Assembly: GCA_032358255.1 (NCBI GenBank)
Contig: JAULBX010009106.1
Location: forward strand, 47,684-111,683
Source of the DNA: Heterotrichella gracilis
Lineage: Eukaryota; Sar; Xanthophyceae; Tribonematales; Xanthonemataceae
Length of the DNA stretch: 64,000 nt
Reading direction: 5' to 3'
In this document: positions 712 to 63,900 of the stretch, piece after piece
How the letters are laid out: each line of letters opens with the position of its first letter
Position numbering within the stretch: the stretch's first letter is position 1
Translations under genes and position numbers: made by a program
The notes under the pieces: model-generated
The model's database searches: none
The model's input: only the letters and a program-made list of their open reading frames with translations
What the model was told of the DNA's origin: nothing

Positions 712-3700
712 ATGACAGCGAGACGTACCTTGGGCCGCCAGGCCGTACGGGCCATATGGACAGCAACACACAGCACCAGCGTGCTGCCGCAGCCGGCCGC
801 CGGATGCCTGGTGCGCCCGAGCCTGTTCAAGTCCTCAGAGTCTTCCTTCAACGGCAAGGCCCTGTGGAGGCTTGTGGTGGGCAGGGCTGCGAGCACCAGC
901 ACCAGGCCCTCGGCACACCAGCAGAAGAGCTCGTTCGCCGTTGCCGTGAGTGCCTGCAACGCCCTGCCCTCGCCAAACGAACACAAAACCACCTGGTTGT
1001 TACACTCTTGTTGCGTACTGTCACGGTGTTTAAACCTCGTCGTGGTTTTGCTCCCAACCCTCGTGTGTGCAGCAGCCGTCGCCAGGCCTAACCAGCTTTT
1101 GCTTCGCTTGCTTACCGCGCTTTACTCTCTTTTGCTTTGGCGACAACCAGTCCTTGGATCCTTTTCTCCAACTTGTACTTTTCTCCCTGTTGTTGGCTGC
1201 CGAAATCCCGCAACCTCCCGATCCCGCCCCCACCCTCCGCCACTATGCATGCATATACGCTTCGCAACCCACACGACCCTCCTCCGCCTCGCCTGACACC
1301 CTTTTGACACCCACCACTTGCTCCGTTTAACAATCACACCCTTTCCTCCGTTCCAGGTCGAGGTGGAGCGCGAAGCCGCAGAGCTGACTGAGCAGATCCA
1401 GGCCCTGGAGCTGGCACTCGAAGTGCCCGTGCAAGAGGCTGCTGGCCCTGTCGACGAGTCACTCATGGTGCGAGACGAACCCAGTGCCCAAATAAGGCTA
1501 CCCTTTGAACCGCCAGTTCAACTCCAGGCTGCCAGCGCTTCTGTGTGCAAGCAGCCTGCGTGTGTGTCCACCTGCCCTTGCCCCCACCACAACGCCACTG
1601 TAGACGGCTGCCTGCGTGCACCCGGCAAGCCTTTTTGCCTTCACCCACCACCTACCTACCTTCCTCTTTCGCTCTACCTGACCTTGCTACAGCTGCTGCC
1701 TCCAGCCTCCCTCCCTCCCTCCCTTCCTCCCCGACCTGCAAATCCCTACCCACCACCCACCCACTCACACCCCTTGGCCCCCCTCCTTCCAGCTGGTCAA
1801 CTGCAACCTGTCTGACGAGACCATCAGGGCACTGGAGGGGCGCGGGATCACCTCCCTGTTTGCCATCCAGAAGGAGGTGTATGAGCCCGCAAGGGCAGGC
1901 AAGGACCTGATTGCGCGCGCCCGCACAGGCTCTGGCAAGACCCTGGCCTTTGCCCTGCCAGTCATTGAGGACCTGCTCAAGGTGTGAAGGGTTTTGGAAG
2001 GGTGTAGGGTTCCGATAGGTGCAGTGTGTGTGCGCCCAGGGTGAGGCAAGACCCTGGCCTTTGCCCTCTTGTTAGCGAAGACCTGCTCAAGGTGTGTGGG
2101 GTTTGGAAGAGATGTTGTAGCTGGGTAGGGTGCAGATATGCGGCTTTTGAGACCAGCCCTGTATGCTTTCAGGCTGTGCGGTTAGCCAGGTTTGACAGGG
2201 CAGTGCGTTTGTCGCCTGTGGCTTTGTGCGCCCCCTTTCGCCTGTCTGCTTAATGAAACTGCGCTGACATAGGGTGCTTTCTGCTTCTGCTCCCATCTCC
2301 CCAACCACACACACACACCACTGTGGCTGTGCGCCGTGGTCACCACCCTTACGCCCCTCCGCCCCCACACCACCCACCCCGCACCCCACACCACCGCAGG
2401 AGGACCGCGCCGCCGGCGTCAAGCCCCGCAAGGGACGCGCCCCCCGCTGCATCATCCTGGCACCTACCCGGGAGCTGGCCAAGCAGGTGGAGAGGGAGTT
2501 CACCGCCGCTGCCCCGGGGCTGCGGGTGGGGTGCTACTATGGCGGCACCTCCATCGTGCCCCAGGAGCGCGAGCTGAGCCGCGAGGGCGTGGACGTGGTT
2601 GTGGGCACCCCCGGCAGGGTGATCGACCTCATCGACAGGAACGTGCTGGACCTGTCAAAGGTAAGAAGGGTTTTTGGGTTGGCAAACCTGTAAAGGGTTT
2701 TGGGGCGCAGGGAGGGTGATTGTGTAGGGATTCGGGGCGCAGGCAGGGCGGGCCAGTGTGGTTTTAGTGGGTAGGTTCTGTGGTGGCTGGGCTACGAGGG
2801 GGAGCCCCACAGAAACGACCTAACAGGTTGGGGAGAAAGCCCCGTGTGGGTGGGATTCCCATCGCGCTGTGTGCATTTTAAGTGACGGAGCGGGGATGGA
2901 CCTAGTGAACAGGGGCACGCCTCCTTTACAGTGGCATTGCCAGCTGATGGAACCTGCCTGTCTGGACAAGCTTTCTGGCTGCTATCTGCCTGGGGAGCGC
3001 AAACAGCAGCCCGCTGGACCTCTACTAGTTGTGTTGGTGGCCAGGATGGATGCCGCAACACACCACCACCGCCGCCCCCCTCTCACCCCCCTCCCTCCTC
3101 CCCCGCAGATCCGCTTTGCCATCCTGGATGAGGCCGACCAGATGCTCAACGTTGGCTTTGAGAAGGATGTGGAACACATCCTGGAGAACGCCCCCCAGGA
3201 GCGCCAGTCCATGCTGTTCTCAGCCACCCTTCCCCGCTGGGTGAAGACGCTGGTGAAGCGCTTTTTGAACAACCCCATCACCATCGACCTGGTGGGCGAC
3301 GACCAGACCGGCAAGATGGCGGAGAGCATCACGTGAGTGGGGTTGTGTGGGTGGGTGGCTGTGATCTAGCTGGTCTGGGATGTGCAGAGGGGGAGGCGTC
3401 TGGTTTTTAAGGTCCCTTTCTTCCTCCTCCACCTATTCCTCTCTCTATCTGTGTTCCCAAACCCACTTTGCCTTTTTGTTGCGCTTCCCGTAACATCTCC
3501 TCTAGGGTGAAGGGGAGAGTGCACTCCCCTCTCACGCCCCATGTCACGTAGCGCCTTGGCCATCCAGGTGGCCCCTTAACCCCGAACCCTAAACCCTAAT
3601 TTCACATCCCCTCCCCCTTCGCAGCGCCTTTGCCATCCAGGTAGCCCCCGAGGCCCGCCGCTCAATCCTGGCCGACATCCTGACGGTGTACAACCAGGAC

Positions 3701-6700
3701 GGGGGCAAGGCAATCGTGTTCACGCAGACCAAGCGCGAGGCGGACGAGGTGGCGGCTGCCATCGCAACCACGCACCCCTGCGAGGTAACCAGCTACGGTC
3801 TGTTTGGGGCAAGGGTGTCGGGTCACTGCAGGCCAAGCGGGGCTGGTGGCACCCTCCATGCATCCGAGGCTGTTATGGCGCTGTGATGCCTCAGTGAGCC
3901 ATTAGCAAGGGTCCCAATCCTGGCGTGGCCACCCTACCACCCTACCAGTTCTCTTCTGTATAGTAAGGAGACGCTGCCGTGCTGGACGGGCTCAGAACCC
4001 TATTACCCCAGAACACACAGAGCCAAACCCTAAAAACCCTCGGCCCCACCGCAGGCCCTGCACGGCGACATCGCCCAGAAGAGCCGCGACGCAGTCCTTG
4101 ACGGGTTCAGGGCGGGAGACTTTACAGTTCTTGTGGCAACTGATGTGGCTGCCCGGGGGCTGGACATCCCCGAGGTCGACCTGGTGGTACACTACGAGCT
4201 GCCACAGGTGCGCGGGGTGGACCCTAGGGATGGGTTTTTGACGGGTTCCGGGGCGGGTGTGGGGTGAGGGTTTTCAATGTGCTAGTGATTGCTGATGTGG
4301 CTGCCCGGGGTCTGGACGTCCCCAAGGTTGACCTGGTGGTACACTACGAGCTGCCACAGGTGCGCGGGATGGACCCTAGGGAAGGTTTTTTTGCTGGTTT
4401 GTTTCCCACCTTGTGTGCATGTGGAGCGGCCGTGTGAGGTGGGAGGTCAATGTAAGAGTTCATCAACAGGTGAAACAGCTCCTGCACATTGACCTCACCG
4501 CGTTTAAGTGCTGGGCTACATCCAACAATAAAACCCTGCCCTTTGCGACTCCAACCCGCCTAGGATCCACCGGAGGAGGAAAAGCCCGAAACCCTAACCC
4601 CCCCACCGCAGGAGCCCGAGGGCTTCTTGCATCGCAGCGGGCGCACCGGGCGCGCCGGGCGCTCTGGCACCACCATCGCCCTGTTCACCCGCAAAGAGCT
4701 TGGCTACTTCAAGCGCGTGCTGCGTGAGACCGAGACCAAGAACATTACCATGGTTGGGCCGCCCTCGCCCCAGCAGGTCATGCAGGCCTCCACAAAGATG
4801 GTGCGTGGGAAACCCTAGGGTTTTGGCGGGGGCCGGTAGGGTTTGTGGTGTGGGGGTTGGATACGGCGGGGGACGGTACTAGGGTTTGGTGGGAACCCTA
4901 GCGGGTGCTGCGGGAGATTGAGGGTAAGAACATCACCATGGTGGGGCCGCCCTCGACCCAGCACGTCACGGAGGCCTCCTCAAAGATGGTTTGGGGAACC
5001 CTAGGGAGGGTTTGGCTGCAGGCGGTAGGGTTTGTGCTATGGGGTTGTTGGTTTTACAGGTGGGTGGGTGGAAGGGTTTGGCGGGGGATGAGGGTTTTGT
5101 GGGGTGGGTGGGCTGGTGTGGGCGAGGTATGCGAGGGGGTGAAGAACTTGGAACTTGGGTCGCAACATTTATTGGTCCACTGTGGAATCCAGCGTGGAAT
5201 TTGACAAAATGGGGCGCAGTGCACTCGAGAATGTGGCATATGCTAGTGGGCGCTAAATTACTACAATGTGGTATGCACACTGAACTCTAGGATGCCCCAC
5301 ATACGAATCCTTACATACACACACCCCTCCCTTGCCCAGGTCCTGTCCCGCCTGGACCGCAACCCTAGGGTATTGGTTGATTTTATCAAATATGTACATC
5401 TTGTAGCCATTTCGCTTACTCTTACTCTGAGTTACTCTGGAATTCAAGCTTGGCAAGGTTGACAATGGGCGGTGGCATAGTACGGACACCGTCAAAGCGC
5501 AAGGTTGGAAACATGCAATCCCCCGTCTGCTGACTCAATCCCCACCCACCCAGGTCCTCTCCCGCCTGGACCGCATCGACCCCGAGGTGCGCGACTTCTT
5601 CCTGCCCGCCGCCCACCTGCTGGTGCAAACCGAGGGTGACGTGACTGTCAAGATCGCAAAGGCCCTGGCCGCGCTGTCCGGCATGCGCCACATACCCCGG
5701 CCAAGGTCGCTCATCACACAGGTGGGTGGTGGGTGTGGAGGGGACGGTGTGGGTGTGGGGAGGGGACGGTGTGGGTGTGGGGTGTGGGTGTGGGGTGGTG
5801 AGGAGGGAGTGCCGTTGGTCATACTGTTGGGTGGGGGATGTGGCGGCGGCGGTGGTGGTGCTGATGGTGACATGGAGGTGCACAAAGCATGCAATATAAA
5901 TTTCTGACAAGCCTTTCACCTGTGCAGACATGTACGTCCTCACATGTACATTGTTTACCTGCTGACTCAGTATAGAAGGGGCAAACCTGGATTGAACCCC
6001 TCTCCTCCCACACACCCACCCCCTAAACCCCCCACTCACCACCCACCGCAGGAGTCAGGCATGATCACCCTGGCGATGGTCCAGGAGGGGGGTAGGTTGA
6101 CCTCCCCAGGCTCGGTGCTGGGCTCGCTCCAGCGCATGTTCCCAAGCGTGAACGTGAACCGGGTGGGAAAGATGCGCCCACTCACGTCGGCGGATGGCAA
6201 GCAGGGCTTTGCCTTTGACCTGCAGGTGCGCTTTCCCTTTAACTCTGAGCACTAAACCCTAAACTTAAACCCTTATCCAGGGTAGCAGGGCGTTACACGC
6301 AGTGAAATAAATGTTGAACGGCGCCAGGCAGTCGAGTCCTTGCACTGTTTTTTCCACTGAGCTTGCGTGATAAGGGGATGTGGATCAGGGGAGAAATGGT
6401 AGCAGTGATTACGAATAAAGCCTGTCCCTGGGACTTCAAATTCTAGACCATAAATCCTCCCCACCCTGGCTCTGAACCCCTGACCCTTGCGCTCGCAGGA
6501 GAGCGTCGCCCGGGAGATCCTGGCACAGATGAACGACCTCCCCGCGGGCGGCCCCAGCCTCTACCGCCCCGAGTCCCTCCCCATGGAGGAGGATGACCGG
6601 AGGGGCGGCCGCTCCTCAGACAGGAGCAGCTACGAACGCGGCGGTGGCGGCGGCTACGCGGCCCGCGACGGCGGCCGCGGCGGATATCGTGGCAGCAGCG

Positions 6701-9102: not shown

Positions 9103-11829
9103 TCAAACAGCAGCAGCGGGCGGTTGCCCACCTGGGGCCCCCTCCCCTTGAATCCCCTCCGCACCCTCCCCTTGCACCCCCTCCTCAACCCCCCAGCTGG
9201 CGGGCGTCCCACTGGCCAGCGCAGGCACCCCCACCGCCGCCACCTCCCCACCCGGCTGCTGCTGCGGCTGTGTGGGGGGGCGTCCCTGCCCGCTGGCCCC
9301 CTCCGCCTCTCCACCCCCCTGCTTCTCCTCGCCCCCTTGATCAGGGGAGTAGTAGTACTGGGAATTCAAGGGGACCCCCTGGTACGGCTCCTCCCCTTGC
9401 CATTGGCCAGGAGAATAATATACATTGCTCCAGGGGAGCCCCGGTTGGGGCCCCTCCCCTCCCACCACCACCACCTGCATGGGGATGGGCCGGCGAGGGA
9501 CTGGGGACGTCATCTGGGTTGCCAGCCGACCCTGTGAGGGAGGGCACACACATATATTCGTCATAGTCAGCATCTATTATCACACATACGTGCCATCACA
9601 CAGCCACAGCCGATCACATGAGGACCTCCAGCTGAGATGAGCTGCTGATATGTGATCATGACATGTGATCATGACATGTGATCATGACATGTGATCATGA
9701 CAGGGAAGCACAGGCGTGCAGGAGACTGGCGTGCCAGGCCATGCCCTCCCCTTCTCCCCCTCCCGCATCCCCACCCCCCCCCATCCCACCTGCCCTACCC
9801 GCTGTTCCTCCCACCTCCCCCTGAAGCATGCCCTTGTGGAACCCATCCCACACCAGCACAGCGACCTTTAAACACACAGCCACCACCCGCCACAAACCAA
9901 CCCACTCCTTCCGTCCCCACCCCTCACCTGCTCCTCGTGGCTGCTGTCCCCCCTCCCCCCCCTCCCCCACTTTCGGCAGCATGCCATGGTGGAGCACCCC
10001 CATCACCAGCGCCTGAAGCACATCTTTATGACCCCCCCACTCCCACCACAGCAACCCCACAAACACACCCCCATACCCCACCAAAAACACACACTCCCCC
10101 TTTCCTCCCCACCCCTCACCTGCTCCTCGTGGCTGCTGTCCCCCCTCCGCCCCCTCGCCCACCTCCTACAACACGCCATGGTCGAGCAACCCCCCACCAG
10201 CGCCGCCCCACCCGCCAGGCACACCGCCACCAGCAGCGACATGGGCATGACGCGGGGGCCGGAGCCAGAGTCGGGGATTGAGCACGTGGAGGAGGAGTTG
10301 GAGGTGTCCGCGTTGATCTGCAGGGGGTGGGGGGTGGGGGGTGAGGTGGGGCGGACGGTGGGGGGGTGTCGGGGTTCCAGGGTTGTCGGGATGAGCCAGC
10401 TGCACCCTCCAGGTCTATCCACTGCTTGCAGTTGTTGTACACGTAGAAGTAGCCCGCGTACCCCTTGCAGACGCAATGCATTTCAAGGGACTCGCAGCTA
10501 GAGTCTTGCACCTAGGGTTTGCAGCTAGGGCTTTGTCCCAGCACCCACCTGCACCTCCAGGCTGACCCGCTGGTTGCAGTTGTTGTACACGTAGAAGTAG
10601 CCCGCATAGCCCTTGGAGCACACTTGTCCGCTGTCAAATTGCCCCCCTGAGGCCACCTCGTCTAGGGACACCAGAGCATCGGGGGGCGCTGCAGGGCACA
10701 GCCAGGGGGTCAAGGGGTAAATAGAATTTGGCATCAAGGGCCATCATGTGATGTCTTCCAATATCTTTGTGGGCGAACCAAATGAACTGAAAAAAACCTA
10801 AACCCTAAGCCACGGCCCCATCTGTGCATCTGCCAGTGCGTGCACAGGGTGCGCAAACCCGCACCATGCAACCTGGTTGGACGCGCCCGTTTGCACCCCT
10901 TCTGTGCACATTGCCATGGAATGCACCCGCACCTCTTGATTCAATCGCGTCGCATTGGAAGACCCCGTCTGTGATTGTGTCGTACGGGTTGCTGCAGAAG
11001 GTGGGTGAGGTGTTGTTGCGGGTGCTAACGCAGCTGCCGCGCATGTACAGCTTGGTGATCCTGCATGGGGTTGGGATGGGCGGAGAGAAATAAGTGCTGT
11101 TTAGGGTTTAGGGTTTTGGTTCCCCTCTGTGAAGGTGGGTCCACACTGGGTACAGCATGGGTGTGTGTGTGTTTGAGGGGGGAGAATCGACACAGGTGTG
11201 CAAGTGTAAGGGGGAGGGGTGGGGGTAGAGAAATAAGTCGGGTTTGAATATTGCAGGTGGGAGCGGTGGCGCGCAGGGGTGGGTGAGGCACAAGGTGTGT
11301 GCGTGCGGGGGTGGTGGTGGTGTGTGCAGACAACCCTAAACCCTAAGTCTAAACCCTGGTGCAGACAAGCGCAGGCGAAATAAACGCATGACTAGCTGCC
11401 GGGCGAGGTTGCAGTGGCTTTGCTAGAAGAGCAGCATCCCCAGTGGCTAAGAGAGTGGTAACTCTTATGGAGTGGAGTTTGCTGCAAAGTCTGTACCAAT
11501 CAGATGCCAAGTATCTAGTATCTGATGGTTGCGAGCAGAGTTAGCGTGCTCTGCACACGAGAGACTATCAACAAGGGCTTTTCCAAGGGTACAAGGGGTA
11601 CATACGTGACATTCTCTGGCGGGCAGTCGACGGGTATGGTGTAGTACAGCTTGGCTGAGTACGCGAAGGAGGTTTGGTATGTGGCAAACCCAAACGCCGC
11701 GCAGATGTTTGGTGACAGCGTCTCTGCTGATCCAGCGACCACTAGAAGTGCTAGCAGCAAAACCCTGGTGCTGTAGCCAGCTAAGGAAGGGTTTCTCCCC
11801 GGTACAGCTGGGGCCATCGCCAGTGGCAT
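9103..11829 (-). CDS. Type I membrane protein of unknown family, Cys-containing ectodomain and Pro/Tyr-rich tail
   Basis: Family not recognised. Five exons (11606-11829, 10933-11060, 10549-10688, 10120-10317, 9103-9531) join in consistent phases to 372 residues. The N-terminus has a signal peptide (STRVLLLALLVVAGSAET). The next 150 or so residues contain about ten cysteines and several N-glycosylation sequons (NVT, NNTS, NSSS), so they are probably extracellular or lumenal. A single hydrophobic segment of about 20 residues (MSLLVAVCLAGGAALVGG) ends in cysteines and a basic stop-transfer stretch (CCRRWARGRR). The tail of about 150 residues is rich in Gly, Pro, Gln and Glu, with YYSPGQW and YYYSPDQ repeats. 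This topology fits a cell-surface or endomembrane receptor-like or wall-linked protein, but there is no direct evidence of function. An alternative upstream Met at 12024 would make a longer leader. Confidence 0.72.
9650..9701. repeat. Tandem repeat, four copies of a 13-bp unit
   Basis: Four perfect, consecutive copies of atgtgatcatgac. Each contains the palindrome TGATCA. They sit in intron 4 of the membrane-protein gene, just upstream (in gene direction) of its last exon. Confidence 0.95.
9919..10016 (-). repeat. Exon echo of membrane-protein exon 4 end
   Basis: About 95 bp that copy the end of exon 4 and its donor (10109-10203). The shared part includes the bases encoding GDSSHEEQ and the following GTGAGGGGTGGGGAGG. 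It lies in the downstream intron. Confidence 0.88.
10405..10515 (-). repeat. Exon echo of membrane-protein exon 3
   Basis: About 10410-10480 copies the segment of exon 3 that encodes GYAGYFYVYNNC (10570-10615), with several substitutions. A CCTAGGGTTT motif lies between the copy and the original. The copy still encodes CKGYAGYFYVYNNCKQW, so the duplication is young or was briefly selected. Confidence 0.88.
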
Positions 11830-12440: not shown

Positions 12441-12869
12441 GTATGCTTGCGGACTTTGTAACGCTGGGTGTTTTTTGGCCCTTGGGCTTTCTCGTCTAGG
12501 GAATCCTCCCCTCAGCGGTTTCATATAATGCCTCCGTTGGCCCTGCAATCATGCATGCATGCATCGCGTGCTTGCTCTTTCAGTCAGTTGCTGTGTGGGT
12601 GGCAGTTTGTACCCTTAAGCCTCCCCTTGCGTTGCACAATAGGGCTATGCGAGAGGGGGATAGCTTCACCCACTGTACACATACATACACTGGACACATA
12701 CGCACCCTGGACATTGGGGTGTACGCACGGAGTATCCCTATACAACCTGAGAGTAGCACGTAGGGTTGCAAACTGCCTGCATCCAGAGTACTGTTTGGAG
12801 ACCCATCTTCCATCAGTACCAATCACTATTGGGCAGTGACCTGAGCGCTTTGTCCATAGGTTGGTTTGC

Positions 12870-13225: not shown

Positions 13226-13240
13226 ACAAAAAGGGGACAC

Positions 13241-17010: not shown

Positions 17011-17348
17011 GGAAGAAGAATTAAGAATGGCAAATGGCATTATTTTCAGCTGCAATTACAACAAAAAGCCTGGGTTTTTTCGTCCAGGAAATCCTCCCCC
17101 GCTTCATTTATAACCCCTCCACGTCTCATGTTGCCAACTGGCCCCACCAGTGATCCGTACGAACCTGCACACAGTTTCACACCAAGCACAACACGCCTGC
17201 ACCATAAAAGCACGCACATTTCGTTTCACAGCCCAAGTGGTTCCCAAATCCAGCTTGCAGCTCCGTCCCTAAAGACCCATGCATGCATATCATCCCCACC
17301 TGCCTTCGCCAATGATGCCCACCCCGTAAGAAAACACCCGTCGCCACG

Positions 17349-24449: not shown

Positions 24450-25635
24450 GGCCTGGATGTTTCTGTCTTAGTATGAGGTTTGCGGTCCCCAGTGCCACCA
24501 GACGGTCTGGTGGGTCGAGGGTTTAGGGTTGGCTTGCAAACCATGCTGTGGCATGTTGGGATTAAAGCAGGATGGTGCGGGGGCAAGTCTGGTGCCTCTG
24601 GACACCTTCCAGCGCCAAATCGCCGACATGATGTCTGGTGGGGACAAGCCAACGTGAGGGCTGAGCCCTTTCTTCTCTGTTTTCCTTCTTTTCCGGCCCC
24701 CACTCTTTGGTGGAGACATTGTCAAGCTCCAGTGGCTCCCCAGGCGGCCTCTGTTTTGGTTTTGCGGGCCTCATGGTTCTGAATCATTATATGGAGACAA
24801 TCAATGATTACATGACATGTCATTGAGAAGCCAGCACCATCATTAATTTGGAACCTCAATGGCTTTGTACGGAACGGGAATCCCAACTCTTAGAGCTATT
24901 TTCTGTGTTTGGATTGTCACGCAGCATTGCATCGTGCCGGCGGCATGCAAGACGATTGCGCATTGCAAACTGCAGTTGCCAATGGGAGTTATCGGTGCGC
25001 CTTACACTGCAGATCAAATTGGGGGTTGGATGTAATCAACATTGCTTGTGGAATGCAATACAATAGGCATGCACAGCGCATTATGTAGGAGCTTAGCCTG
25101 TCAGTGACGAGAAGCGGCGGTAAACAATTATAATGTACATGGTACATGGATGTGGTTGTAGGTACATGGAAATTCCAAGAGAGAGTGGTCGGGGTTGGGA
25201 TTTGAAATTATTACAAAATTGGTACTCTGAGAGGCCTGACGGAACAATATATTCATGCCACGTCCAAGGGTCACCGTTTGAGGGTTTTACCCTAACCCTA
25301 AACTAAAGAGTTGCAGGCAGCGGCTGCCGCTGCTGCAAGCTGATACCCTCCCAAGCTTACAAAACAGGCAAAGGGGAAGGCTGTAAATCATATGAGGCAA
25401 GGCTTGGGCAGAGCAACCTATATACATCTGCGCAAGCTTATTTTACAAACCATGAGCAAGAAAAGAGCACACTGGCGGAGCACACGGGTGCAGTTGATAA
25501 CCACGCGTAGGGTATCCGCACCATGATCAGCAGTAAGGGCATGCAGGACATGGTTCCCTTCTGTAAATATTATACAAAAAGCTACAGCTCAGCGTGTGCA
25601 GTGGGATACCACATGCACGCCATGGTGGCTGCTCC
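24450..25635. other. Convergent intergenic region with echo of the CBP60-like C-terminus
   Basis: Positions 24550-24657 copy the last 36 or so codons of the CBP60-like gene, including a TGA stop (KQDGAGASLVPLDTFQRQ...). The rest should be 3' UTRs of two convergent genes. CCCTAACCCTAAAC occurs at about 25290. No further gene seen. Confidence 0.75.
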
Positions 25636-28280: not shown

Positions 28281-28501
28281 GGATAAAATCAGGGTTCCAG
28301 AAATGTTCATAACCCTAGACCCTAGACCCGCCAAACCCTCCCTCACAATGCTGCAGCCCAACTCATTGAGGGCACTGCAAGCACTCCAATGGGTGTAGGG
28401 CTTCAGGAATTTTAAAACCCTATAAATACACCCTACACCTTGTACAGGTTGGCAGTGACAGAGTTGGATTAGGGTTCCAAAACTGTTCAAAACCCTAGAC
28501 C
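28280..28501 (-). repeat. Echoes of the GST last exon and 3' flank
   Basis: AACCCTAGACCCTAGAC-type motifs and copies of the last coding bases (CTTGTACAGGTTGGCAGTGAC) recur at about 28295-28330, 28430-28465 and 28490. The stop codon itself lies within a CCTAGAC motif. Confidence 0.8.
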
Positions 28502-47894: not shown

Positions 47895-49169
47895 CCGCTG
47901 GATGCAAATGTGCCACGGTCTCTGTCTTCCTAAACTTGCCTGCATTTAGAAAGGAAGGGTGCACGCATTACAGCTACAGACACACACAGTTCAAGAAGGG
48001 AGCACGCATTACAGCTACAGCTACAGCTACAGCTACAGCTACAGCTACAGACACACACACAGTGGAAACACCCAGTCTTTGGCGTATCGCCTTTTGCATT
48101 GCTACATCCATGGTCTTTAACGCTTGGTGAACCATGCCATTGTCGACTGTATTCCATCTGAACGAGTGCGGTTATTTGCGGCATTTTGAACTTGCCAATG
48201 GAGGCATTGCTGCTCGAGCACGCAACTCGTGTTGTTTCCCCATCGAGTGCTACTAGCACATGAATATTGTTTTACAATGATTGACTTATCCCTACATCTT
48301 GATTTGACACATTTTCAGGCAATACAGCCAGCTTATTGCAATTGCATTGTCATTTTGCTTGACCAGCCGTTCTGGCTGGTTGGTGCCCTGGACCAGGTGC
48401 GAGCCAGTGGCTTTTTAACTCCACCTTTACGCGTCCCCTTGATTGATAGCCAGCATGCATGGCAAGTAATGCAATGCATGCCATGTGGCAAGTAATCATT
48501 GATAATCATGGGCCATGTGCTTGGCATGTCCGACTCGGCCCTGGCGGCCACACGGTCGGACTCGGCCCTGGTGACCATCGTACTGAGCTCAGATTTAAAT
48601 CCACATTGGAAGCATTCGGAACGACACCAAGTAATCACAAGGATTCTGTAGGTGCATTGCGCAGCTGTGCAGTTGCTATATCTATAGATAGTACTCAAAA
48701 GGGCATAGCATGAGCTGACGGGAGGACAAATCTAAATTGGCAATGGCTAGAACCACCACAATATGCAGCAAATGACACACAATCGATTGGTTCTGAAACA
48801 TATAACACGCAATTAGTTCAAAGACCAGATGATGGAGCTGCCTGGGTATTTTGCGCACCCTCAGGCGGTAACAATACGCAGATCGGTAGTAGTATGCGCC
48901 ACTCAATCACTAGGTGCACGTGGTGCAGAGTCCCTGGCCCTAACCCTTGTCCCATAGCAGCTCATTGAGACAACCCTGGTCACCCCACTCACTGCAATGG
49001 CCAAAAGGCATCCAGGCGCCGCCCTCTTGCCCCACCTCCCATGTACACGGCACCCTCTTGAGAAAATCTTGGTGCTTGCCCACAACGGTTGCGCGCTCAG
49101 TGGTAATAGTCATTGAACACCTGTAGCACGCTTTCATTCCACTCGCCATGCTGCTTTTCCACCAGCTGC
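47895..49169. other. Convergent intergenic region PTH / GCL
   Basis: 3' flanks of two convergent genes. It holds a tandem acagct hexamer array (48011-48050) preceded by a copy of the same GCACGCATTACAGCTACAGA block at about 47961, and a direct repeat of GTCCGACTCGGCCCTGG-like sequence at about 48525 and 48552. An echo of the GCL end lies at 49095-49168. No gene called. Confidence 0.6.
49095..49168 (-). repeat. Echo of the GCL C-terminal exon
   Basis: A direct repeat of the last 22 or so codons ([17 protein letters not shown]) and the stop region (49170-49245). It is located just downstream of the stop, with about 85 percent similarity by eye. Confidence 0.9.
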
Positions 49170-52100
49170 TCAGTAGTAGTATTCTTCGCTGAACACCGGT
49201 AGCACGCTTTCGTTCCACTCGCCGTAGTACTTTTCCAACAGCTGCTCGGCCCGCGTGATCCCGCTCTCTGCAATGGGCACAAGGTCGTCCAGGAACTTGG
49301 CCTCCTGGCGCCCCCTCCGCTCCAAACCCTCTCGGGACAGCTGCAGCATCTTGATGGCCAGGTCCTGCACGGTGCCATCCCTGAAGGGCGTCTTGAGCGC
49401 CGTCCTGGGTGCCTGCACAGGAGGGTACACCACGCAGATTGTCAGCATTTGCTACATCAAGCTGATGCATGGTTAGAGCTGTGCCGACCAGTACATTTTG
49501 TACCTATGCCAAGTCCACCTTTCAAGAGAAAAGTGCACGCTTTATACGCTTCACCAGGTCCAAGCAGCGCCAAGGTGTTTTGAAACTTTGCACTTGGTCC
49601 AGCCAATTCCCAAGCAGTGAAGTAATATACAACACATGTTCAGCACCTGCCAACAGCTGCGTCGACCAGTACACTTTCTGCCTGTGCTGTTCTCCGCCTT
49701 TCACAATGAAGCTACACTGTTTATACACTTGACCAGGTCCAGGCAGGGCTAAACTTTCCTATAACTCTGTGCTTGATCCAGCCAAGTCCCAAGCAGTGAA
49801 GGAATGCACATGCATGACCATTTCCCATGTGGTAAAATAATTCCTTTTATCCCGCGAACGTCTTCCAACCAGCACAATATCCTGCACAAGGCCTTTCCCC
49901 AAAGGTTTCACAGCTGTTTCTATATTTTAATTCAATTTAGTCTCATCTGTTTAAAGAGCTCATCCACACCGGGCTAAGGCTGAAGATGGATACAAAACCA
50001 TCGCCCCATTCCATCCTCGTACCTCCTCCCGCAGGTACGCACGCTCCTCCGGGGTCCAGTCCTTGACCAAATCCCAGGCAGCATCCAGGGACTGGCGGTC
50101 ATACAGCAGCCCCACCCATAGGGCGGGAAGAGCGCATATACCCTTCCACAGCCCGCCGTCCGCCCCGCGCATCTCCATGTATCGCTTCAACCGTACCTCG
50201 GGAAAGATGGTGGTCAGGTGCGTCTCCCAGTCCTTCAGGGAGGGGAACTCGCCTGCCAAGCATGCACGTGGGTCAAGCTACATCCCCTTAAAACGTTTTT
50301 TAAAAACACACTTTAAAGGACAGCGAATGGTGCAGAAAATCCCAGAAAACACCTCTGTGCCATCATACGCACCCTCCTCCCCTCTACAGCACACACCCCT
50401 GTGCACAATTCCTGCCCCGCAATACAGGTCAACACCGGCCCTCACCCAGTGCAGGAGTGACAATTCCAATTTAACACCGCCAACCCCATCTCCGCTGTTC
50501 CCTTCCCCATCCTCAAGTGATTTCTCACCTGGCATGCCGGGCAGCTTCCCCTGCATGAAGTCCCTGAAAGACTGCCCCGTCACGTCGTGATAGACCCCGT
50601 CCCGGTACACAAAGTACATGGGCACGTCCAGCGCGTATTCTGTGTATCGGTCAAAGCCAAAGCCCTCCTCAAACACAAAGGGCAGGTCGCCGCACCTGCA
50701 CATAGCAGATATTTCCATTATTGATATCGTAGAGGACATAGTAGACAGGAGAGCATTGCCCTTCTCTCTGCTAATTCCTCTTCCTTACCCAACGCGCTTG
50801 TTCAAGGACAGGCCGCGTACCTATTTATTTATTTATTCATTATTGCCGTGGCAAAGCCGAGCCCTCTTCAAATACAGGTGCCAGGTTGTCACCATGCACA
50901 CGGGCATTAGATTATACGAAACCGCTGACCATGGTATGCGGGAAAATAATGATGCGACGGTGACCATCCATATGATCAAACTGTGCACATGGACTCCTAT
51001 GGAACCCCAGTGCAACTGCTTGGCTTGCTCATGCAAGCAGGAGGAGTGCGCCGATGAACCATCTGAAAAATATGCATCCCAACAATTGCTGCCATGACCC
51101 CAGAGACTGGAGTACTGCAGGACCGCCCATGTGCACGTACAGATGCTCCAGCACCTCCATGCGCTCGGTACCAAAATCAAAGATTAAGATTATAAAACTA
51201 AGATCAGAGACTATGCAATGGCGGACCCTGCATAGCCTCTGCAGATGCCCCTCAAGAGGCATCGTGTCCTGTAGGATTGACTGCCAATCTGGTTTTATCG
51301 CTAAACGCATGTAAAAATGTATACCTGTCGGGGTCTGTGTCCGTCCACACATGGCTCCTCCAGCTGAGGTAGCCGGTTGGCTTGCCCTCCTTGAAGGGTG
51401 AGTTTGCAAACAGAGCGGTGGCCACTGGCTGCCATGCCAGGCCCACACGGAACATCTTCACCATCTCCTCCTCAGTCTCAAAATCCACATTCACCTGGGG
51501 CGCAACACAGGAACGAAATTTGATCAGAGTTTGTTGAAATTCCACAATGTATATTTGAGAAAATCCACAATTTTCATTTGTGAGAATCCACGATTAAATG
51601 GTTTGTTTAAATGCCACATATGCCCAGTTGGATCTTCACCGTCTCCTCTTTGGGCCCGGAATTTACATTGACCTGGAGCGTCACCCAGGTACAGTTTGCC
51701 TCAAATTGCAAATTCCAGCTGCATTTTCAACACTCTGTCCTCAAGTTCAATCCACATTTGCTAACTGCATGCTTGGACTACGCTTCACGCCCCTTGCCTC
51801 TGGATGGTGCACGCCCCTGGATAGTGCGCTATCTAAACATCATGTGGCTAGTTAATCACCATAAACTCCCATCCACTCATCCCATTCAAGGCAATGCCCT
51901 TCCCTTCACTTACTGCTTTTCCATAACTGACGTGCCTGTTCAAAAAATGGTTTTCCACCACCGCTTTCCCTTCAAACGCACCTGGATTGTGCATGACCTG
52001 AACATCATGTCCCGCCCCAGGTCGCCCCGCTTGGGCATGTAGTCCCGCATGATGCGGTACCGCTGCTTGGGCATCACAGGCACCTCCTCAAAGGTGGAGA

Positions 52101-53348
52101 TGGGGTCAAATCCCAGGCCCAGGAAAGCAATCCCCAGGTCCTCGGCGATTGACTGGACCTAAAATGGGGCAGGCAGGTGGTCAGATGGGCTGTAGGTATG
52201 CATGGGAGCGGAGCAAAAGTTGTATGCCCGGTACAGAGTGCCAAGCCAGGTTGTTGCCTGCGGTATGCTGGCCCAGGGCGCCACCCTCTTCTTATCAAGG
52301 ACAGCATTTACGCGAGACTGACAAGCCAAAGGCCGGCAGGTTGCAGCAGTATCGGCGCCCAACTGGCTCCCACACCCACCACGCCACCCACAAACAAGCA
52401 GCCTGCTACACGCCCAGGCCACCAGACGCCAACTTTGGACCGTTGAGGGGCAATAATCATCTCCACTGATATTATATCCGTTCACCGGTATTTAACATTG
52501 AGATTCACCTCTAGTGCACAGCTCACCCCCCGTTTCCCACGCACCTGGTACAGATGGCTGTTGGTCTCAGCGCAGGTCTTGTGCAAGCTGTCCACTGGAG
52601 CGCCGCTCAGCTCAAACTGGCCACCAGGCTCTAGGGAGATGGACTGCCCATCCATCTCCAACCCGATAATGTGTTCTTTCTCCAAGACAGGCTTCCAGCC
52701 ATAGCGTTGCTGCAGGGCTGTCAGTAGCTGCTCGATCTTGTCGTAGGGCACCCGCTGTTGGGTCCCCAGCAGGTAGCCCAGTTTCTCATGCTCTGTGCCA
52801 ATCCTGCAGGGTCACAAATAACATCAACTTCAGATACATTTACAAGTGGTGTCGGCTGCTAGCTTTTTCGTGCTCTGTGGCAATCCTGTAGGGTTCACAG
52901 TCATACCTCTGCCACTGGCTTATGGCACAAAAATGCCCACCTATACACAGCTGATGTGCCGGTAAGTGGCTACCAGCCACCTAGGTGGCAGGGCAGACAG
53001 TGTGCACAATGCCTTTAGCTGGTGTGCCAGTACTTGGTACTACAACTTGGTGCCAGTACTGGTGCACATTGGCCTGGCAGCCTACCAGTACACATCCTGC
53101 TAATAGGCAGAGATAAGTGGCTACACCAGCTGTTAGTTTGCTGCCTACCTGAACTTGCTGGGAGGCTTGCACCCAGAGGCCAGGTAAGCAGACAGGTCCT
53201 TCTCAGTCAGGGGCTTCACAGAGGCTGGGCTTGAGACTGACTGAGACCGCACCACCAGGCGCTTGGCCAGCTGCCTGCGAGGTTCCTGGTTCGATGTGGA
53301 GCACGCCCCAGCATGCCTCTGGCCCCTGAACAGCTGTGCTGACTGCAT
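49170..53348 (-). CDS. GSH1: Glutamate-cysteine ligase, plant type
   Basis: It joins glutamate and cysteine using ATP, the first and limiting step of glutathione synthesis, usually in plastids. Seven exons (53149-53348, 52545-52803, 51982-52158, 51325-51494, 50529-50695, 50023-50252, 49170-49412) give 481 residues (Arabidopsis about 520). The first 50 residues are Arg/Ser/Gln-rich, like a transit peptide. Diagnostic stretches: [93 protein letters not shown] and WVGLLYD. The region matching the plant redox pair Cys349-Cys364 reads [20 protein letters not shown] here, with no cysteine, whereas the cysteines of TCAE and ICALP are kept. The GST at 28502-30683 would be one consumer of the product. 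Confidence 0.96.
49480..49800 (-). repeat. Internal duplication in GCL intron 6
   Basis: Two direct copies of about 140-150 bp (about 49483-49622 and 49657-49800), sharing CGACCAGTACA, CACCAGGTCCA(A/G)GCAG and CCAAGCAGTGAAG. Intron-internal, non-coding. Confidence 0.85.
51600..51850 (-). repeat. Exon echoes of GCL exons 4 and 3
   Basis: About 51645-51695 copies the acceptor edge of exon 4 (original 51450-51500). About 51795-51845 copies the donor edge of exon 3 (ATCATGT preceded by GGAT(A/T)GTGC; original 51980-52010). Both edges of intron 3 are thus echoed inside it. Confidence 0.75.
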
Positions 53349-58320: not shown

Positions 58321-59841
58321 TCATGCGGCAGGCTGGGAGGCGCATGCAGGGCGGCGCATGACGATCAGATTCTGCCTAGTCACCAGGAATGCCACCACGG
58401 TGCCTGCTGCTGCCTCAAACAGGAGCTCCCTGCGGGGAACAGACACCATCAGCTGACGGAACCAACTTGCAGTCTGTCAGCTTCAAAAGTGCACCACATG
58501 TCCGCACACCAACAATATTCTGCCCAGCCCTCTGCGACCGTGAACCCTGCTTCCTCAGACCATGCCCCAGTGCACTCCAGCATTGCCAGGCCCACTTCCT
58601 TGCCACATCGTATATATAAAAAGAACGACGATTTTATAATGAATTGCATCTAGAACAAACGACGTTCATCACCAAAATCTAAATCTAAATAGATCAAACA
58701 AAATGCATTCCAAGGGAGCGCACCTCGGGTACTTCGCCCACCCCTCCACTACCGTGAACCCCGCTTCCTCGTAGAAGGCCTTGGTGCTCTCCAGGGTGGT
58801 GAGGTACACATCCCTGTCGCCATGGCGCTTATCGGCCTCCTCAACCAGCCGATGCAGCAGTGCGCTACCAATGCCCCGGTCCCTGGGACAGAACAAATGG
58901 TTTACATACACAGAATAAATTAGGATTCATAGTCGGCACGCCTCGTCTCAAGGACGAGGGGTTTGGTTGATAAAGGACCTGCGCCCTAGAGACACACCGT
59001 CGTAGGGAGAGCTAGGCAGGCCGACAAAGAACCAGCCTAGGCACGCTGGTAAAGTATATGATATTATATTCACTAATAGTACTATATATTCACCTGAGTA
59101 TTCTGCCAAGATGGGGGAAATGCATAGGCCAATGCACTGTAAAGCATTGGAAGTTGTATTCTAAAGCATTAGCCTGAGCATCTTTCCAACGGTAGTGCAT
59201 TGGTCCCCTGGGATTTGGAACACTCGATGCCCCCATGCTGTGTGGCCCCCTCGTGAATGGTTGCACTGTTCACCTGTGAGCCGGATCCACGATCAGGGTC
59301 CTCAGCTCCACAAAGCTGTTGGCATCAGCGCCCACCGGCAGCAGCTGCCCAAACCCTAGGACGTGGCCCCCATCATCAGTGGCCACCACAAATCTGTCCG
59401 CTTGCAGGCCAAGGGGGTTCATTCTGGAGGGGCAGGCGGACCAGTAGGGCGTGAGCACACGGGAAACAAAGGTGCAATACACAAAAAAAATGGATTTTGT
59501 GTTTTTGCCATACACTCCTCAAACAACAAACCTGTGATCAGCTTTGACTAGATATATAAATGGAAGGGTGAGCAGGCCAACGTTGGAGGGAGCGCACAGG
59601 AAGAATAGGAAAAAAACGTTTTTGAAAGAGACCTGCCTGTACGTTGCTCCCACCCTCACCGTTCGTTGATCACCATTGTCCTGATGGTGGGCTCGTCCAA
59701 AGGCACCCCTTTCCTGAATGTGATGTTGGCAAGCAGTTGTGTGGAGGCACTTGCAAGTGGAGCCATTGATAGTCTGTAGACAGGTGTAGGCCGTGCCTTA
59801 CGAGGGAAAGGTTTCGAGTCTGGCTTGTGGCTCAAGGCCAT
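58321..59841 (-). CDS. GNAT-family N-acetyltransferase
   Basis: An acetyl-CoA-dependent N-acetyltransferase; substrate unknown. Four exons (59660-59841, 59274-59423, 58724-58882, 58321-58429) give 199 residues in consistent phases. The core has the strand pair RFVVATDDGGHVLGFGQL, the β4 strand FVELRTLIVDPAHR, and the acetyl-CoA pyrophosphate-binding motif R-x-x-G-x-G (RDRGIGSALLHRLVEEA). The YLTTLESTKAFYEEAGFTVVEGW segment is the typical end of the fold. The short N-terminal extension is basic (KPFPRKARPT) and could be a transit peptide. Confidence 0.9.
58475..58620 (-). repeat. Decayed echo of GNAT exon 3
   Basis: In one frame this intron segment reads EEAGFTVAEGWAEYCW, copying EEAGFTVVEGWAKYPR of exon 3 (58724-58800) with frameshifts around it. 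It is the copy of the exon's donor edge. Confidence 0.88.
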
Positions 59842-60901: not shown

Positions 60902-63900
60902 ATGCCGAAATCCTCGTACTTTCGAGGCGTTACCCTCTTCCGGCCAACTGGAAAATGGAGGGCACAGGTACTCTTACATCCTTGCAGAGCAGCTGCGCTG
61001 CTTTGCTACAGCTCGCTGCTTGCTCCAAGCCCCTGCCCCACGCCTGTCACTTCACTAGGGGAACGTATTCCCTGCCACCGCATTCCGCTCGTTTGGGGCA
61101 GAAACAACCTTGTTCTTGTTCCGGCCGCCCGTGCACCAACCTTGCGTGAGAAACTCGCGCTTTTCTCACAGCAAACCCTGTTTTCCTGCAGATTTCCGCG
61201 GGTGGCAAGACAACCAGCCTAGGTGACCATGATACCGAAGAGGAGGCCGCTCGAGCCTTCGACCGTGCAGCCATAAACAAGGCTGGCCCAGCGGGCAAAA
61301 CCAACTTCGACATCAGCGACTACGCGGACGAGCTCGAGACCCTGCAATGTAAGGCTTGCGCGGGTGCCTGCATGCATCTTGTTTGCACTTTGGGGCGACA
61401 TCCGGGGAGGGGGGCAGGACACATCTTGGTGATATAGGCTAGCCACCCACCCACCCTAGCCACAGGCTCCCTTTGCTGTTGGCGCGAGAGGGGGTTCTCA
61501 CAGCGCAACTCGTGGCATGAGGATAGTTTGGATGGGGTACCGTTACGCGCACCAGATGCTTAACCTTGTGAACCGTTGCTGTGCCTCTTGGGCGAGGGCG
61601 AGCACGTCGGATTGCAACGTCCCCCTCTCCGAAATCCACACAATGTGCCTCAAGCAACTTGTCTGAGCTGGGTTAGTAAGTGTCATGAGCTATTCAGAGT
61701 TGCGTTATGGCTACGGGTCGGGTGAATTACCACTCTTGGCGGCCATGGTCGGCTCTTTGTGCCCGTATGGCATGGTGATGGTACCCTCGACCGTTATCGC
61801 TTGGCTAGGCTAGTGCTGTTGGATTATATGCTTGCATACATGTTTTTCCCCCGGAATATGCTCTCTCAGTGTGCCTCGGTCCGTCCCACGCTGCCAGAAC
61901 GACCGTTGTAAGCAAGAGGAGCAAACATGTGCATGCATCTTGAAGTAGTGTTTTTCTTGGTGGGTAATGTCTTTCTTTCCTGAAGTAGACCTGCCTTACT
62001 AACAAAGAGGACTGAGGCCTTAAAAACCCAAGCACTTCGTTAGTGGCACACAGAGATGAACAACTTTTGTAGTGTTTGTTGAGTGGCAGCACTTTCCTCC
62101 GCCCAAGCTCCCAGTTGCGTTGCCAGTCCGGCACGCAACCCCCCTCCCGCATACATATGGCATCAACCCACAAACGTACCAACCTCCCTTCCCCTTCCAC
62201 TGCAGCCATGACCCAGCCAGAGCTGGTGGCTATGCTGCGGAGCAAGGCGCGCAAGTCGGGCACTCAGACCTCCCACTACAGGGGCGTCTCCCTCCTCAAG
62301 CAGACCGGCAAGTGGCACGCGCAGATCAACGTCGGGGGGAAGCAGGTACGCACGCCTCCCTTGGCAACCCATGTGGTCTTCTACCGCATACTTGCATTCC
62401 AGCCCGATCCCCTGACCCTGCTATCAACTGCTAAGTGAACCAACCCTTTGCTGTCCAGAGCACAGTACTACGTTTGTTGAATTACAGGTCTTCTACCGCA
62501 TTCCTGCATTCAAGTCCAGTCCAGCTATTGAAAGCACACTATTGTTGAAGCACAGCTCAAGTACCAAACCCAGATCTAAGTAATGTGCGACTGCTGTACC
62601 TCCACAGGTGCACCTGGGCTTTTTCCCTACAGAGGAGCTGGCTGCGCGTGCGTATGACCGTGCCGCCATCAACAAGGGGGCGCGCGAGGGTGGCAAGATC
62701 ATCACCAACTTTGACATCGACGACTACGGGGACGAGCTGGAGTGGCTGAGGGAGATCTCGCAGGAGGAGCTGGTGCAGGCGCTGTCCAGCGAAACGTGAG
62801 TGGGGTGGTGGTGGGGGGTGGGAAGGGGGGAAGGGAGGAAAGCACGTGTGTGAGTGTGGCAGTATTATGTGGGAAGGGGGGGGAGCATGGCCGGAAGGAA
62901 GGAAGGGGCAGGGTTTGTGGGGCGCAGGCATGTGCTCTCACTGGGGCAAGCGCGCTGCCAGTTGGGCGGGTACACCTTGCACTGTGCCTGAAGCATAGCT
63001 TGATGTCCAGTAGTTGCACATCTACTGCACATTTGCACATAGCACTGCAGCCTGTGTCTGGCTGCACAGCTTGTACCTGACCAGGATTACCCTAACACAG
63101 TCTCTAACCCTACACCCTCTGGTCATCCAGGCACCGCAAGCTGACCATGGAGATGCTGGCCGAGGGCTTTGGCACCAAGGCAGACAGTGTGTTCGGCAAG
63201 AACCTCAACCGGCGGCCCGCCACCGCCACCGTGGACGAGCTGCGCGCCAAGGCGGAGCGCGCCACGCCCAAGCCCACGGCCGCAAACCCCATCTACCCCG
63301 ACCTTGGCAAGAAGCCGGCGCGTCCCTTGCACAGCGGGTCCACAGTGACCGACACCAGCAGCGGGAGGGTTTCTGGGGAGGGTGTTCCCCCCTTGGGGAA
63401 ACCCACCGCGCTGACCCCTACCAAGGGGGCGGCGCCCGACTGGCTGGGGAGGTCGTTTGCCCGCAAGGGGGGCAAGGCGAAGTACGGGGAGGACCCCGAC
63501 TGGGCGCCGCTGGCTGGCGACCCCCCCGCCAAGACGTTTGTGTCCCCGAGGAGGGCTAAGAAGCAGCGGGTGAGCTACCGCGACTCTGACGAGGACACAG
63601 AGGAAGATGAGGAGCAGCTGTGGGAGGTGGGGGTGGGGGTGCGGGGGGGGGAAGCGGACCCCAAGCCGCAGCGCAGCAGGAAGGCCGGGGGAGGGCCCCT
63701 GCATGGGCTGCTGGACCACGGGGAGTGGCACATAGGCCCGCTGCCGCCCGCCGCCGCCGATGCCGGCGCCGCCAATGCCGACGCCGCAGTCATGTCGCCG
63801 CAGCGCACGCCTGCCAAGGGGCCGCGCCTGGGGGTTCTTGTCCCCACCCGGGTGCTCCCCGCCAGCCCCGTCCTGCGCACGCCGGAGCAGCCGCCGCAGG

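What the first reader, a model, noticed from the sequence alone, without database searches (positions are those of the whole stretch)
712..62607. Systematic 'exon-edge echoes': introns carry tandem copies of the neighbouring exon end plus its splice site
In at least eleven genes, 30-180 bp copies of the donor or acceptor edge of an exon, including the splice site and some intron bases, lie a short way into the same intron or 3' flank. I count over 30. They range from one mismatch in 84 bp (exon 3 of the CBP60-like gene) to barely recognisable. Copies almost always stay in the intron, in direct orientation, and on the side of the edge they copy. Known routes such as tandem-duplication intron gain or replication slippage may contribute, but the density and edge preference are unusual. 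The inference is an active local process that duplicates exon-intron junctions and lengthens introns.
Basis: partly seen in the sequence, partly recalled or inferred. Interest (0 to 1): 0.9.

Follow-up and report, generated by a model that had tools for sequence, protein, structure and literature searches.

The report
Exon-edge copies inside neighbouring introns
In this stretch of what looks like a green alga's genome, introns are littered with decaying short copies of the neighbouring coding edge, left by local DNA duplication, far more often at coding edges than chance and selection predict, which hints at an unrecognised way that introns grow.

Summary
A self-trained gene model and self-BLAST give 35 local direct-repeat families (four low-complexity or paralogous pairs set aside); 32 have a copy crossing a coding edge (27 splice edges, 5 at stop codons), against 14.2 +/- 2.7 for shifted annotations. 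Uncurated: 31 of 38. Local pairs are 46 direct, 3 inverted. Edges match their own intron 27 of 162 times; mismatched introns 0 of 11,072.

The copies are dead: equal mutation at codon positions 1 and 2, frameshifts, new stops, about 74-96% identity. Offsets stop at 214 bp in 27 two-copy pairs.

Random tandem duplication with selection and decay predicts about 46% at edges (maximum 73% in 360 simulations), against 91% here. Stop-codon cases show that splice sites are not required. Spacers are unusually telomere-like (9.3%; matched introns 2.4%).

Best reading: short staggered-break or template-switch repair duplicates 69-214 bp, often with telomere-like filler, and occurs or survives preferentially at coding edges. 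Why the edges is unexplained. The evidence is one 64-kb window, without relatives or RNA. One junction-crossing duplication is published in potato; I saw no report of such density.

The parts
1922..2109 (+). donor edge of exon 1793-1981 (copy 1922-2000) and its echo 2033-2109
   Evidence: 82% identity, offset 111
3547..3648 (+). echo 3547-3575 of acceptor edge at 3625
   Evidence: 29 bp, 90%, offset 73
4140..4399 (+). donor edge at 4207 (4140-4247) and echo 4292-4399
   Evidence: 91%, offset 152, splice site kept
4712..5085 (+). donor edge at 4800 (4712-4893) and adjoining echo 4900-5085
   Evidence: 78%, nearly complete tandem, offset 188
5335..5575 (+). echo 5335-5361 of acceptor edge at 5554
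   Evidence: 27 bp, 96%, offset 214
9812..10204 (-). donor edge at 10120 (10004-10204) and echo 9812-10013
   Evidence: 77%, offset 192
10396..10618 (-). donor edge at 10549 and echo 10396-10470 (donor GT lost)
   Evidence: 85%, offset 149
17869..18107 (+). acceptor edge at 18062 (18024-18107) and echo 17869-17947
   Evidence: 80%, offset 155; acceptor moved by hand from 18113
18129..18513 (+). donor edge at 18257 and tandem echo 18311-18513 (donor GT lost)
   Evidence: 87%, offset 182
18767..18986 (+). 84-bp exon of the CBP60-like gene with donor edge, and tandem echo 18874-18986
   Evidence: 96%; exon part 83 of 84
19310..19501 (+). donor edge at 19377 and echo 19416-19501, telomere-like spacer
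   Evidence: 85%, offset 106
19645..19878 (+). acceptor edge at 19821 and echo 19645-19723
   Evidence: 86%, offset 155
19928..20049 (+). donor edge at 19967 and echo 19997-20049, spacer of near-perfect telomere repeat
   Evidence: 92%, offset 69
20202..20379 (+). acceptor edge at 20340 and echo 20202-20271
   Evidence: 93%, offset 108
20666..21211 (+). acceptor edge at 21091 with two upstream echoes (period about 197)
   Evidence: 74-78%
21261..21775 (+). donor edge at 21324 with downstream echoes (period about 151)
   Evidence: 77-85%
23753..24111 (+). donor edge at 23802, about four tandem copies with telomere-like intron part
   Evidence: period 82-86
24341..24663 (+). stop-codon edge at 24449 and echo 24549-24663 in the 3' flank
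   Evidence: 84%, offset 208; exon end set by hand
25809..26105 (-). acceptor edge at 25870 and echo 26022-26105
   Evidence: 93%, offset 213
28288..28536 (-). stop-codon edge at 28502 with echoes 28427-28467 and 28288-28328 (two families)
   Evidence: 90%, offsets 69 and 180
29346..29565 (-). donor edge at 29513 and echo 29346-29437 (donor GT lost)
   Evidence: 85%, offset 127
31517..31677 (-). stop-codon edge at 31654 and echo 31517-31580
   Evidence: 78%, offset 94
33525..34015 (-). donor edge at 33901 with two echoes (period about 171)
   Evidence: 74-84%
34037..34333 (-). acceptor edge at 34098 with echoes (period about 100)
   Evidence: 77-79%
35357..35498 (-). donor edge at 35485 and echo 35357-35398
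   Evidence: 83%, offset 101
36400..36553 (-). GC-type donor edge at 36515 and echo 36400-36447
   Evidence: 94%, offset 107
36627..36800 (-). acceptor edge at 36682 and echo 36734-36800
   Evidence: 90%, offset 107
36900..37176 (-). donor edge at 37107 and echo 36900-36983 (donor GT lost)
   Evidence: 83%, offset 194
49095..49247 (-). stop-codon edge at 49170 and tandem echo 49095-49171
   Evidence: 82%, offset 73
51454..51692 (-). acceptor edge at 51494 and echo 51632-51692
   Evidence: 74%, offset 178
52782..52899 (-). acceptor edge at 52803 and echo 52864-52899
   Evidence: 86%, offset 82
58522..58794 (-). copy of exon sequence 12 nt inside the donor at 58724; counted as not crossing an edge
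   Evidence: 76%, offset 214
49477..49805 (-). the one clear long intron-only repeat pair
   Evidence: 74% over 151 bp, offset 178
62375..62517 (+). short intron-only repeat pair
   Evidence: 87% over 31 bp, offset 112

Best explanation
These are real, non-functional fossils of many independent local DNA duplications. In each, 69-214 bp around a coding edge was copied in place and in the same direction, most simply by repair of a staggered double-strand break or paired nick (fill-in of the overhang, then end joining), or by a short there-and-back template switch. Telomere-like filler was often left between the copies. Duplications inside an exon are removed by selection. Those crossing an edge are tolerated, because one intact coding edge stays in use and the second becomes intron or 3' flank, where it decays neutrally and lengthens the intron. 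Shown here: the duplications, their neutral decay, the excess at coding edges over neutral models, the size cap in two-copy pairs, and the telomere-rich spacers. Inferred: the break-repair route and a role for telomerase or telomere-end machinery. Not explained: why non-coding duplications of the same kind are so scarce. Some feature of coding edges must raise either their rate or their persistence.
For: 32 of 35 families cross a coding edge against 14.2 expected; 31 of 38 uncurated. Edge windows hit their own intron 16 of 81 and 11 of 81 times, controls 0 of 11,072. GC-matched windows predict a 32% edge share. Neutral simulations predict 43-51%, maximum 73% over 360 runs. Neutral decay over 31 pairs: mismatches 8.6, 8.4 and 19.8% at codon positions 1-3 and 17.4% in intron parts, close to the 1:1:2:2 expected if copies were identical at birth; 1-2 nt indels; 95 nonsynonymous (3 of them stops) and 83 synonymous changes in 579 codons, splice dinucleotides kept in 22 of 27. 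Offsets of 27 two-copy pairs stop at 214, a cap kept by 0.015% of permutations. Spacers 9.28% telomere-like, sequence beyond the echo 3.21%, matched segments of echo-free introns 2.36 +/- 1.23%. Local pairs 46 direct against 3 inverted.
Against: In 20 of 31 events (measures retyped by me) the aligned length is under 0.8 of the offset, where neutral tandem duplication predicts 22%, so spacer origin is unproven. In 6 of 22 pairs the spacer weakly resembles the sequence beyond the echo, including 4 of the 7 with at least 90% identity, which favours eroded plain tandems over inserted filler in those. A model in which copies already differed at birth fits somewhat better (delta lnL 3.9, driven by intron parts; no difference on codons alone). 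Weak intron-only similarity exceeds controls: 26 of 367 tiles against 5.3 at score 24, 14 against 1.3 at 30, 2 against 0.7 at 34. 9 of 22 spacers lack a telomere-like hexamer, and by eye the motif shows no consistent orientation in the spacers listed.
Confidence: 0.5

Rival explanations
1. An edge-directed mutational process: something tied to coding edges, such as polymerase pausing at exon ends, RNA-DNA hybrids or exon-positioned nucleosomes, concentrates breaks or fork stalls there, and repair leaves the duplications.
For: Edge bias unexplained by neutral models or base composition. The edge lies in the middle half of the duplicated unit in 26 of 31 events against 57% in simulations (p=0.0015). 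Intron-only events are scarce at strong scores.
Against: No direct evidence for any such mark. Stop-codon edges are not RNA exon ends. The median position of the edge within the unit equals that of random spanning (0.447 against 0.444; whole distributions do not differ, p=0.25).
Confidence: 0.25
2. Ordinary random tandem duplication. The bias arises only because exon copies are anchored by selection while purely non-coding pairs are lost twice as fast.
For: Short tandem duplication is common (recalled); 11 of 31 events are complete or nearly complete tandems; neutral decay fits; 4 of 7 high-identity pairs keep weak spacer similarity beyond the echo, for which I raised this from 0.12 to 0.15.
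Against: Six forward-simulation settings, 360 runs, give mean edge fractions of 0.43-0.51, maximum 0.727, against 0.914 observed, or 0.82-0.84 with all 38 families. By an upper estimate from aligned lengths about 47 intron-only events should be visible at score 40 before loss by deletion; a scan of introns shows two pairs and a 13-bp array.
Confidence: 0.15
3. The two copies come from two diverged versions of the gene, either joined wrongly in assembly at haplotype boundaries or recombined unequally in the cell, so similarity survives only in coding sequence.
For: Would explain the scarcity of non-coding repeats and abrupt intron-side ends, and agrees with the delta lnL of 3.9.
Against: Echoes carry frameshifts, dead splice sites and many amino-acid changes, so they are not intact alleles. 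The share of third-position changes is homogeneous over events (p=0.94). In 16 of 22 pairs the spacer does not resemble the sequence beyond the echo, although intron parts within copies differ by only about 17%.
Confidence: 0.1
4. Echoes are functional: alternative or mutually exclusive exons, or splice-site decoys that regulate splicing.
For: 22 of 27 echoes keep the splice dinucleotide, and my gene finder used some as mini-exons.
Against: Retention matches neutral expectation at about 8.5% per site; codon positions 1 and 2 mutate alike and clearly; frameshifts. No internal stop appears in any of 11 models without the mini-exons.
Confidence: 0.03

Closest known systems
Potato RdRp intron gain by a tandem duplication that crosses an intron-exon boundary (PMC4974935; passages, abstract among them)
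   Same: A local tandem duplication containing the 3' end of an intron and the start of the next exon, splice signals included.
   Different: One event that created a new intron. Here about 30 events in 64 kb, and the copies lie inside existing introns or 3' flanks.
Short tandem duplication at staggered breaks by CST-guided Pol alpha-primase fill-in (PMC8355091; passages); patch-mediated repair in rice and paired-nick duplications in plants (recalled)
   Same: Direct, short, local duplications from overhang fill-in; the enzyme complex is the one that fills in telomere ends.
   Different: I know of no preference for coding edges there; spacers here are often tens of bases long and telomere-like.
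Interstitial telomeric insertions at repaired breaks (PMC7215372; passages)
   Same: Telomeric repeats inserted at breaks, a few with direct duplication of the target from staggered ends.
   Different: Those were found in horse and other mammals. Here the telomere-like sequence is mostly degenerate, is found in 13 of 22 spacers and sits at coding edges.
Internal direct repeats in new Daphnia introns (PMC4202315; passages, abstract among them)
   Same: Repeats in introns attributed to repeated staggered breaks, with a trend to longer introns.
   Different: Those are internal to new introns; here copies of the neighbouring coding edge lie in introns not known to be new.

Membership tests
Staggered-break or paired-nick tandem duplication | Copies in direct orientation and close together | tested here: met
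   46 direct against 3 inverted local pairs; offsets 69-214 in 27 two-copy pairs
Staggered-break or paired-nick tandem duplication | Whole unit duplicated head to tail | tested here: inconclusive
   11 of 31 events align over at least 0.8 of the offset, 20 of 31 do not, against 22% in simulations; spacer resembles the sequence beyond the echo in 6 of 22
Staggered-break or paired-nick tandem duplication | Empty ancestral site carrying one copy | not testable with these tools
   No genome is held for the window; two viral-contig scans found no relative
Interstitial telomeric insertion | Telomere-type repeats at the junction | tested here: inconclusive
   Enriched in spacers, but present in only 13 of 22 and mostly degenerate; the species' own telomere repeat is not known here
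Tandem-duplication intron gain (Rogers model) | New intron whose two ends are the two copies of one exonic segment | tested here: not met
   Echoes lie inside existing introns or 3' flanks; none of 35 families joins a donor edge to an acceptor edge
Introners | Near-identical inserts shared between unrelated genes | tested here: not met
   Only 7 far direct and 10 far inverted pairs in the window at E<0.05, none near-identical over an intron; those touching spacers that I noticed are telomere-like
Mutually exclusive or alternative exons | Second copy keeps frame and coding constraint | tested here: not met
   Equal rates at codon positions 1 and 2, 1-2 nt indels, three new stops
Assembly or haplotype misjoin | Both copies are intact alleles | tested here: not met
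   Frameshifts, 95 nonsynonymous changes in 579 codons, 5 of 27 splice dinucleotides lost; raw reads not available

The most novel reading that the evidence does not exclude
Coding edges are themselves hotspots of a local duplication process in this lineage. Breaks centred on exon ends are healed with telomere-like filler and fill-in synthesis, so every intron is repeatedly extended by dead copies of its own exon edges, and intron growth is driven by the exon edges and not by mobile elements.
Probability: 0.3. Interest if true: 0.82.

Novelty: new variant of a known kind. Interest (0 to 1): 0.62.

Why it matters
How introns grow and where their sequence comes from is an old question, usually answered with mobile elements or random drift. 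Here 27 of 162 splice edges and 4 of 11 stop edges carry a recognisable copy of themselves next door, at a density that the neutral duplication models tried do not reproduce. If it holds genome-wide, it would be a mutational process tied to gene structure, would supply introns with ready-made decoy splice sites, and could be dated and tested by comparing strains. It would also mislead gene prediction, which took several echoes for exons here.

Tried and rejected
Base composition: GC-matched windows give a 32% edge share, so rejected. Faster visible decay of non-coding pairs: only about 1.4-fold from measured rates, and 86% of simulated intron-only events stay visible at score 40. Anchoring by selection: none of 360 simulated runs reaches the observed edge fraction. 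Complete tandem duplication followed by erosion: left open. It fits the 11 of 31 complete events and perhaps the 6 of 22 pairs whose spacer resembles the sequence beyond the echo, 4 of them among the 7 pairs of at least 90% identity. But in most the similarity is far weaker than an intact copy of that age would give, one of the four (4140) scores as well in reverse complement, and another (19928) has a telomere-repeat spacer. Copies already diverged at birth: mixed evidence. Apparent excess of exon over intron part (23 of 27): partly alignment loss on the intron side (6 of 21 flanks); measured against the offset the geometry does not differ from random spanning (p=0.25), so I do not claim it as exon targeting. 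Intron-gain and introner readings: rejected. Identity of the organism: Mesostigma considered and set aside (published mean intron 1142 bp and exon 329 bp); left open. Two searches for algal relatives among viral contigs found none.

Papers: ten searches, whose listings show only the top 4 to 25 of 4 to 284 papers each. I saw these listings plus passages of PMC8355091, PMC6947507, PMC10487979, PMC7215372, PMC4202315, PMC7789003 and PMC4974935. What I saw did not describe systematic exon-edge copies; the library holds open-licence papers only.
Full report
What the window is. Composition is 48-64% G+C in 2-kb steps. I wrote a two-strand gene finder trained on the window itself; it converged on 11 genes, 101 exons and 90 introns with a clear donor (AG|GTGAG) and acceptor (CAG|G) pattern (median intron 329 bp and exon 145 bp). 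The 11 models were given to Pfam as 10 proteins; 8 had a match at E<=0.001: DEAD-box helicase, CRAL-TRIO, glutathione transferase, an SH3 protein, IFT52, glutamate-cysteine ligase with a GNAT domain, AP2, and a weak Calmodulin_bind match below its cut-off for the 'CBP60-like' gene. IFT52 with plant-type genes and abundant TTTAGGG-like sequence (18 matches against 0.02 expected) suggest a flagellate green alga; this is inference, and no genome is held for it.

The repeats. Self-BLAST at E<0.05 gave 66 pairs, of which 46 are direct and within 1.5 kb and 3 are local and inverted, two of these palindromes. I set aside four direct pairs: 22725/23364 and 47969/48040 (low complexity), 21322/22254 (G-rich) and 61233/62628 (two AP2 domains). 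The rest form 35 families; 32 have a copy crossing a coding edge, against a circular-shift mean of 14.2, sd 2.7 and maximum 23 in 20,000 shifts. The three misses are 49477/49655, 58522/58736 (12 nt inside an exon) and 62375/62487. Nine predicted mini-exons, most of them echoes, had been dropped and two boundaries moved by hand; no internal stop appeared. With no curation and nothing excluded the count is 31 of 38, null mean 15.6, maximum 28 in 4,000 shifts. In the Pfam-supported genes alone it is 19 of 23.

Edge by edge. Windows of 80 exon plus 20 intron bases were aligned to their own intron. Scores of 40 or more occurred at 16 of 81 donors and 11 of 81 acceptors; against introns of other genes 0 of 5,536 and 0 of 5,536; reverse complement 0 of 81 and 0 of 81; intron on the wrong side 0 of 70 donors and 3 of 70 acceptors. 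Four of 11 stop-codon edges and 0 of 11 start-codon edges carry an echo. Splice-edge events fall in 7 of 11 gene models, 10 of the 27 in the CBP60-like gene.

The copies are dead. Over 31 representative pairs, mismatch is 8.6, 8.4 and 19.8% at codon positions 1, 2 and 3 of the source exon and 17.4% in intron or flank parts, with 1-2 nt indels common. That is close to the ratio expected if copies were identical at birth, the echo decays freely, and the exon changes mainly at third positions. Among 579 codons, 95 changes are nonsynonymous (3 make stops) and 83 synonymous. Splice dinucleotides survive in 12 of 16 donor and 10 of 11 acceptor echoes, about the neutral expectation. The share of third-position changes does not vary detectably between events (p=0.94). 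These facts speak against functional alternative exons and against misjoined intact alleles.

Is the edge bias more than selection and survival? Within-exon duplications would be lethal as a rule, so some bias is expected. Uniform placement of the aligned lengths predicts a 33% edge share among tolerated events, GC-matched windows 32%. In steady state an intron-only pair, with both copies free to decay, should last half as long as an anchored pair, so this can cost at most a factor of about two (my argument). Forward simulation of random 69-214 bp tandem duplications with substitution, indels, large deletions and rejection of exon damage gave mean edge fractions of 0.43-0.51 over six settings of 60 runs each, maximum 0.727; observed 0.914, or 0.84 (curated) and 0.82 (raw) with all 38 families. 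By an upper estimate about 47 intron-only events should be visible at score 40 before deletion; a scan shows two pairs and a 13-bp array outside edge families. Against this, weak intron-only similarity exceeds controls at low scores: 26 of 367 tiles against 5.3 at 24 or more, 14 against 1.3 at 30, fading to 2 against 0.7 at 34.

Anatomy of an event. In 27 two-copy pairs (multi-copy arrays left out) the distance between copies runs from 69 to 214 and never more, although aligned length and spacer each vary widely; shuffling spacers among pairs respects that cap in 0.015% of trials. So the distance is probably the size of one event. The coding edge lies at a median 0.447 of it (simulated 0.444), with 26 of 31 events in the middle half against 57% simulated. 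The exon-side end is abrupt; the intron-side end keeps weak similarity in 6 of 21 cases. 11 of 31 events are complete tandem duplications. In 6 of 22 pairs with a spacer it resembles the sequence beyond the echo (p<0.05), 4 of them among the 7 pairs of at least 90% identity (4140, 5335, 19928, 28427). 28427 looks like a complete tandem with an indel; in 4140 the reverse complement scores as well, and in 19928 the spacer is telomere repeat. Other high-identity pairs show none (25809) or borderline similarity (20202, 36400). So some partial pairs are eroded tandems, and others seem to have been born with an unrelated spacer.

Telomere-like spacers. Telomere-type hexamers cover 9.28% of 22 spacers, 3.21% of the same length beyond the echoes and 2.36% (sd 1.23) of distance-matched segments of echo-free introns, reached by 0 of 5,000 draws; 13 of 22 spacers hold one against 4.3 expected. 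Degenerate 14-mers (up to 2 mismatches) occur in 12 of 26 echo introns and 8 of 55 others (p=0.005). One spacer (19981-19996) is almost pure telomere repeat. Gene-to-gene differences in motif density may contribute. Insertion of telomeric repeats at staggered breaks with direct duplication is described in horse (PMC7215372), and the telomere fill-in complex makes short tandem duplications at breaks with complementary 3' overhangs (PMC8355091), so the link is plausible but not shown.

Judgement. The building block, short local duplication during repair, is known, and one junction-crossing case is published for potato (PMC4974935). The density at coding edges, the stop-codon cases, the 214-bp cap and the telomere-like spacers together are new to me and were not in what I saw of the ten capped search listings.

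Noticed in passing
12618-14601 and 15173-17066: A tandem pair of regions, 68-70% identical DNA over the longer stretches, with a short predicted protein without Pfam match (13241-13595); no echo family was found in these regions.
   Followed up: partly
window-wide, introns and intergenic DNA: Degenerate TTTAGGG or CCCTAAA stretches scattered through non-coding DNA; within 50 nt of acceptors they are almost all in the CCCTAA direction of the gene (4.4% against 0-0.5%).
   Followed up: partly
43617-43726 and 50726-50837: A dispersed inverted pair, 75% identical over 112 bp, possibly a mobile-element remnant.
   Followed up: no
20077-20178 and 16441-16526: Imperfect palindromes of about 90-100 bp; the first lies in an intron between two echoes.
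   Followed up: no
36515 and 36408: A GC-AG type donor that is itself copied with its exon edge; both copies still read CAG|GCAAGT.
   Followed up: partly
49170-59676: My gene model fuses a GNAT acetyltransferase with a glutamate-cysteine ligase; possibly separate genes.
   Followed up: no
9646-9702: A 13-bp unit repeated 4.4 times at 97% match within a predicted intron.
   Followed up: no
18852-19305: The intron start of the 84-bp exon occurs a third time further in (about 19019-19061), so echoes can chain.
   Followed up: partly
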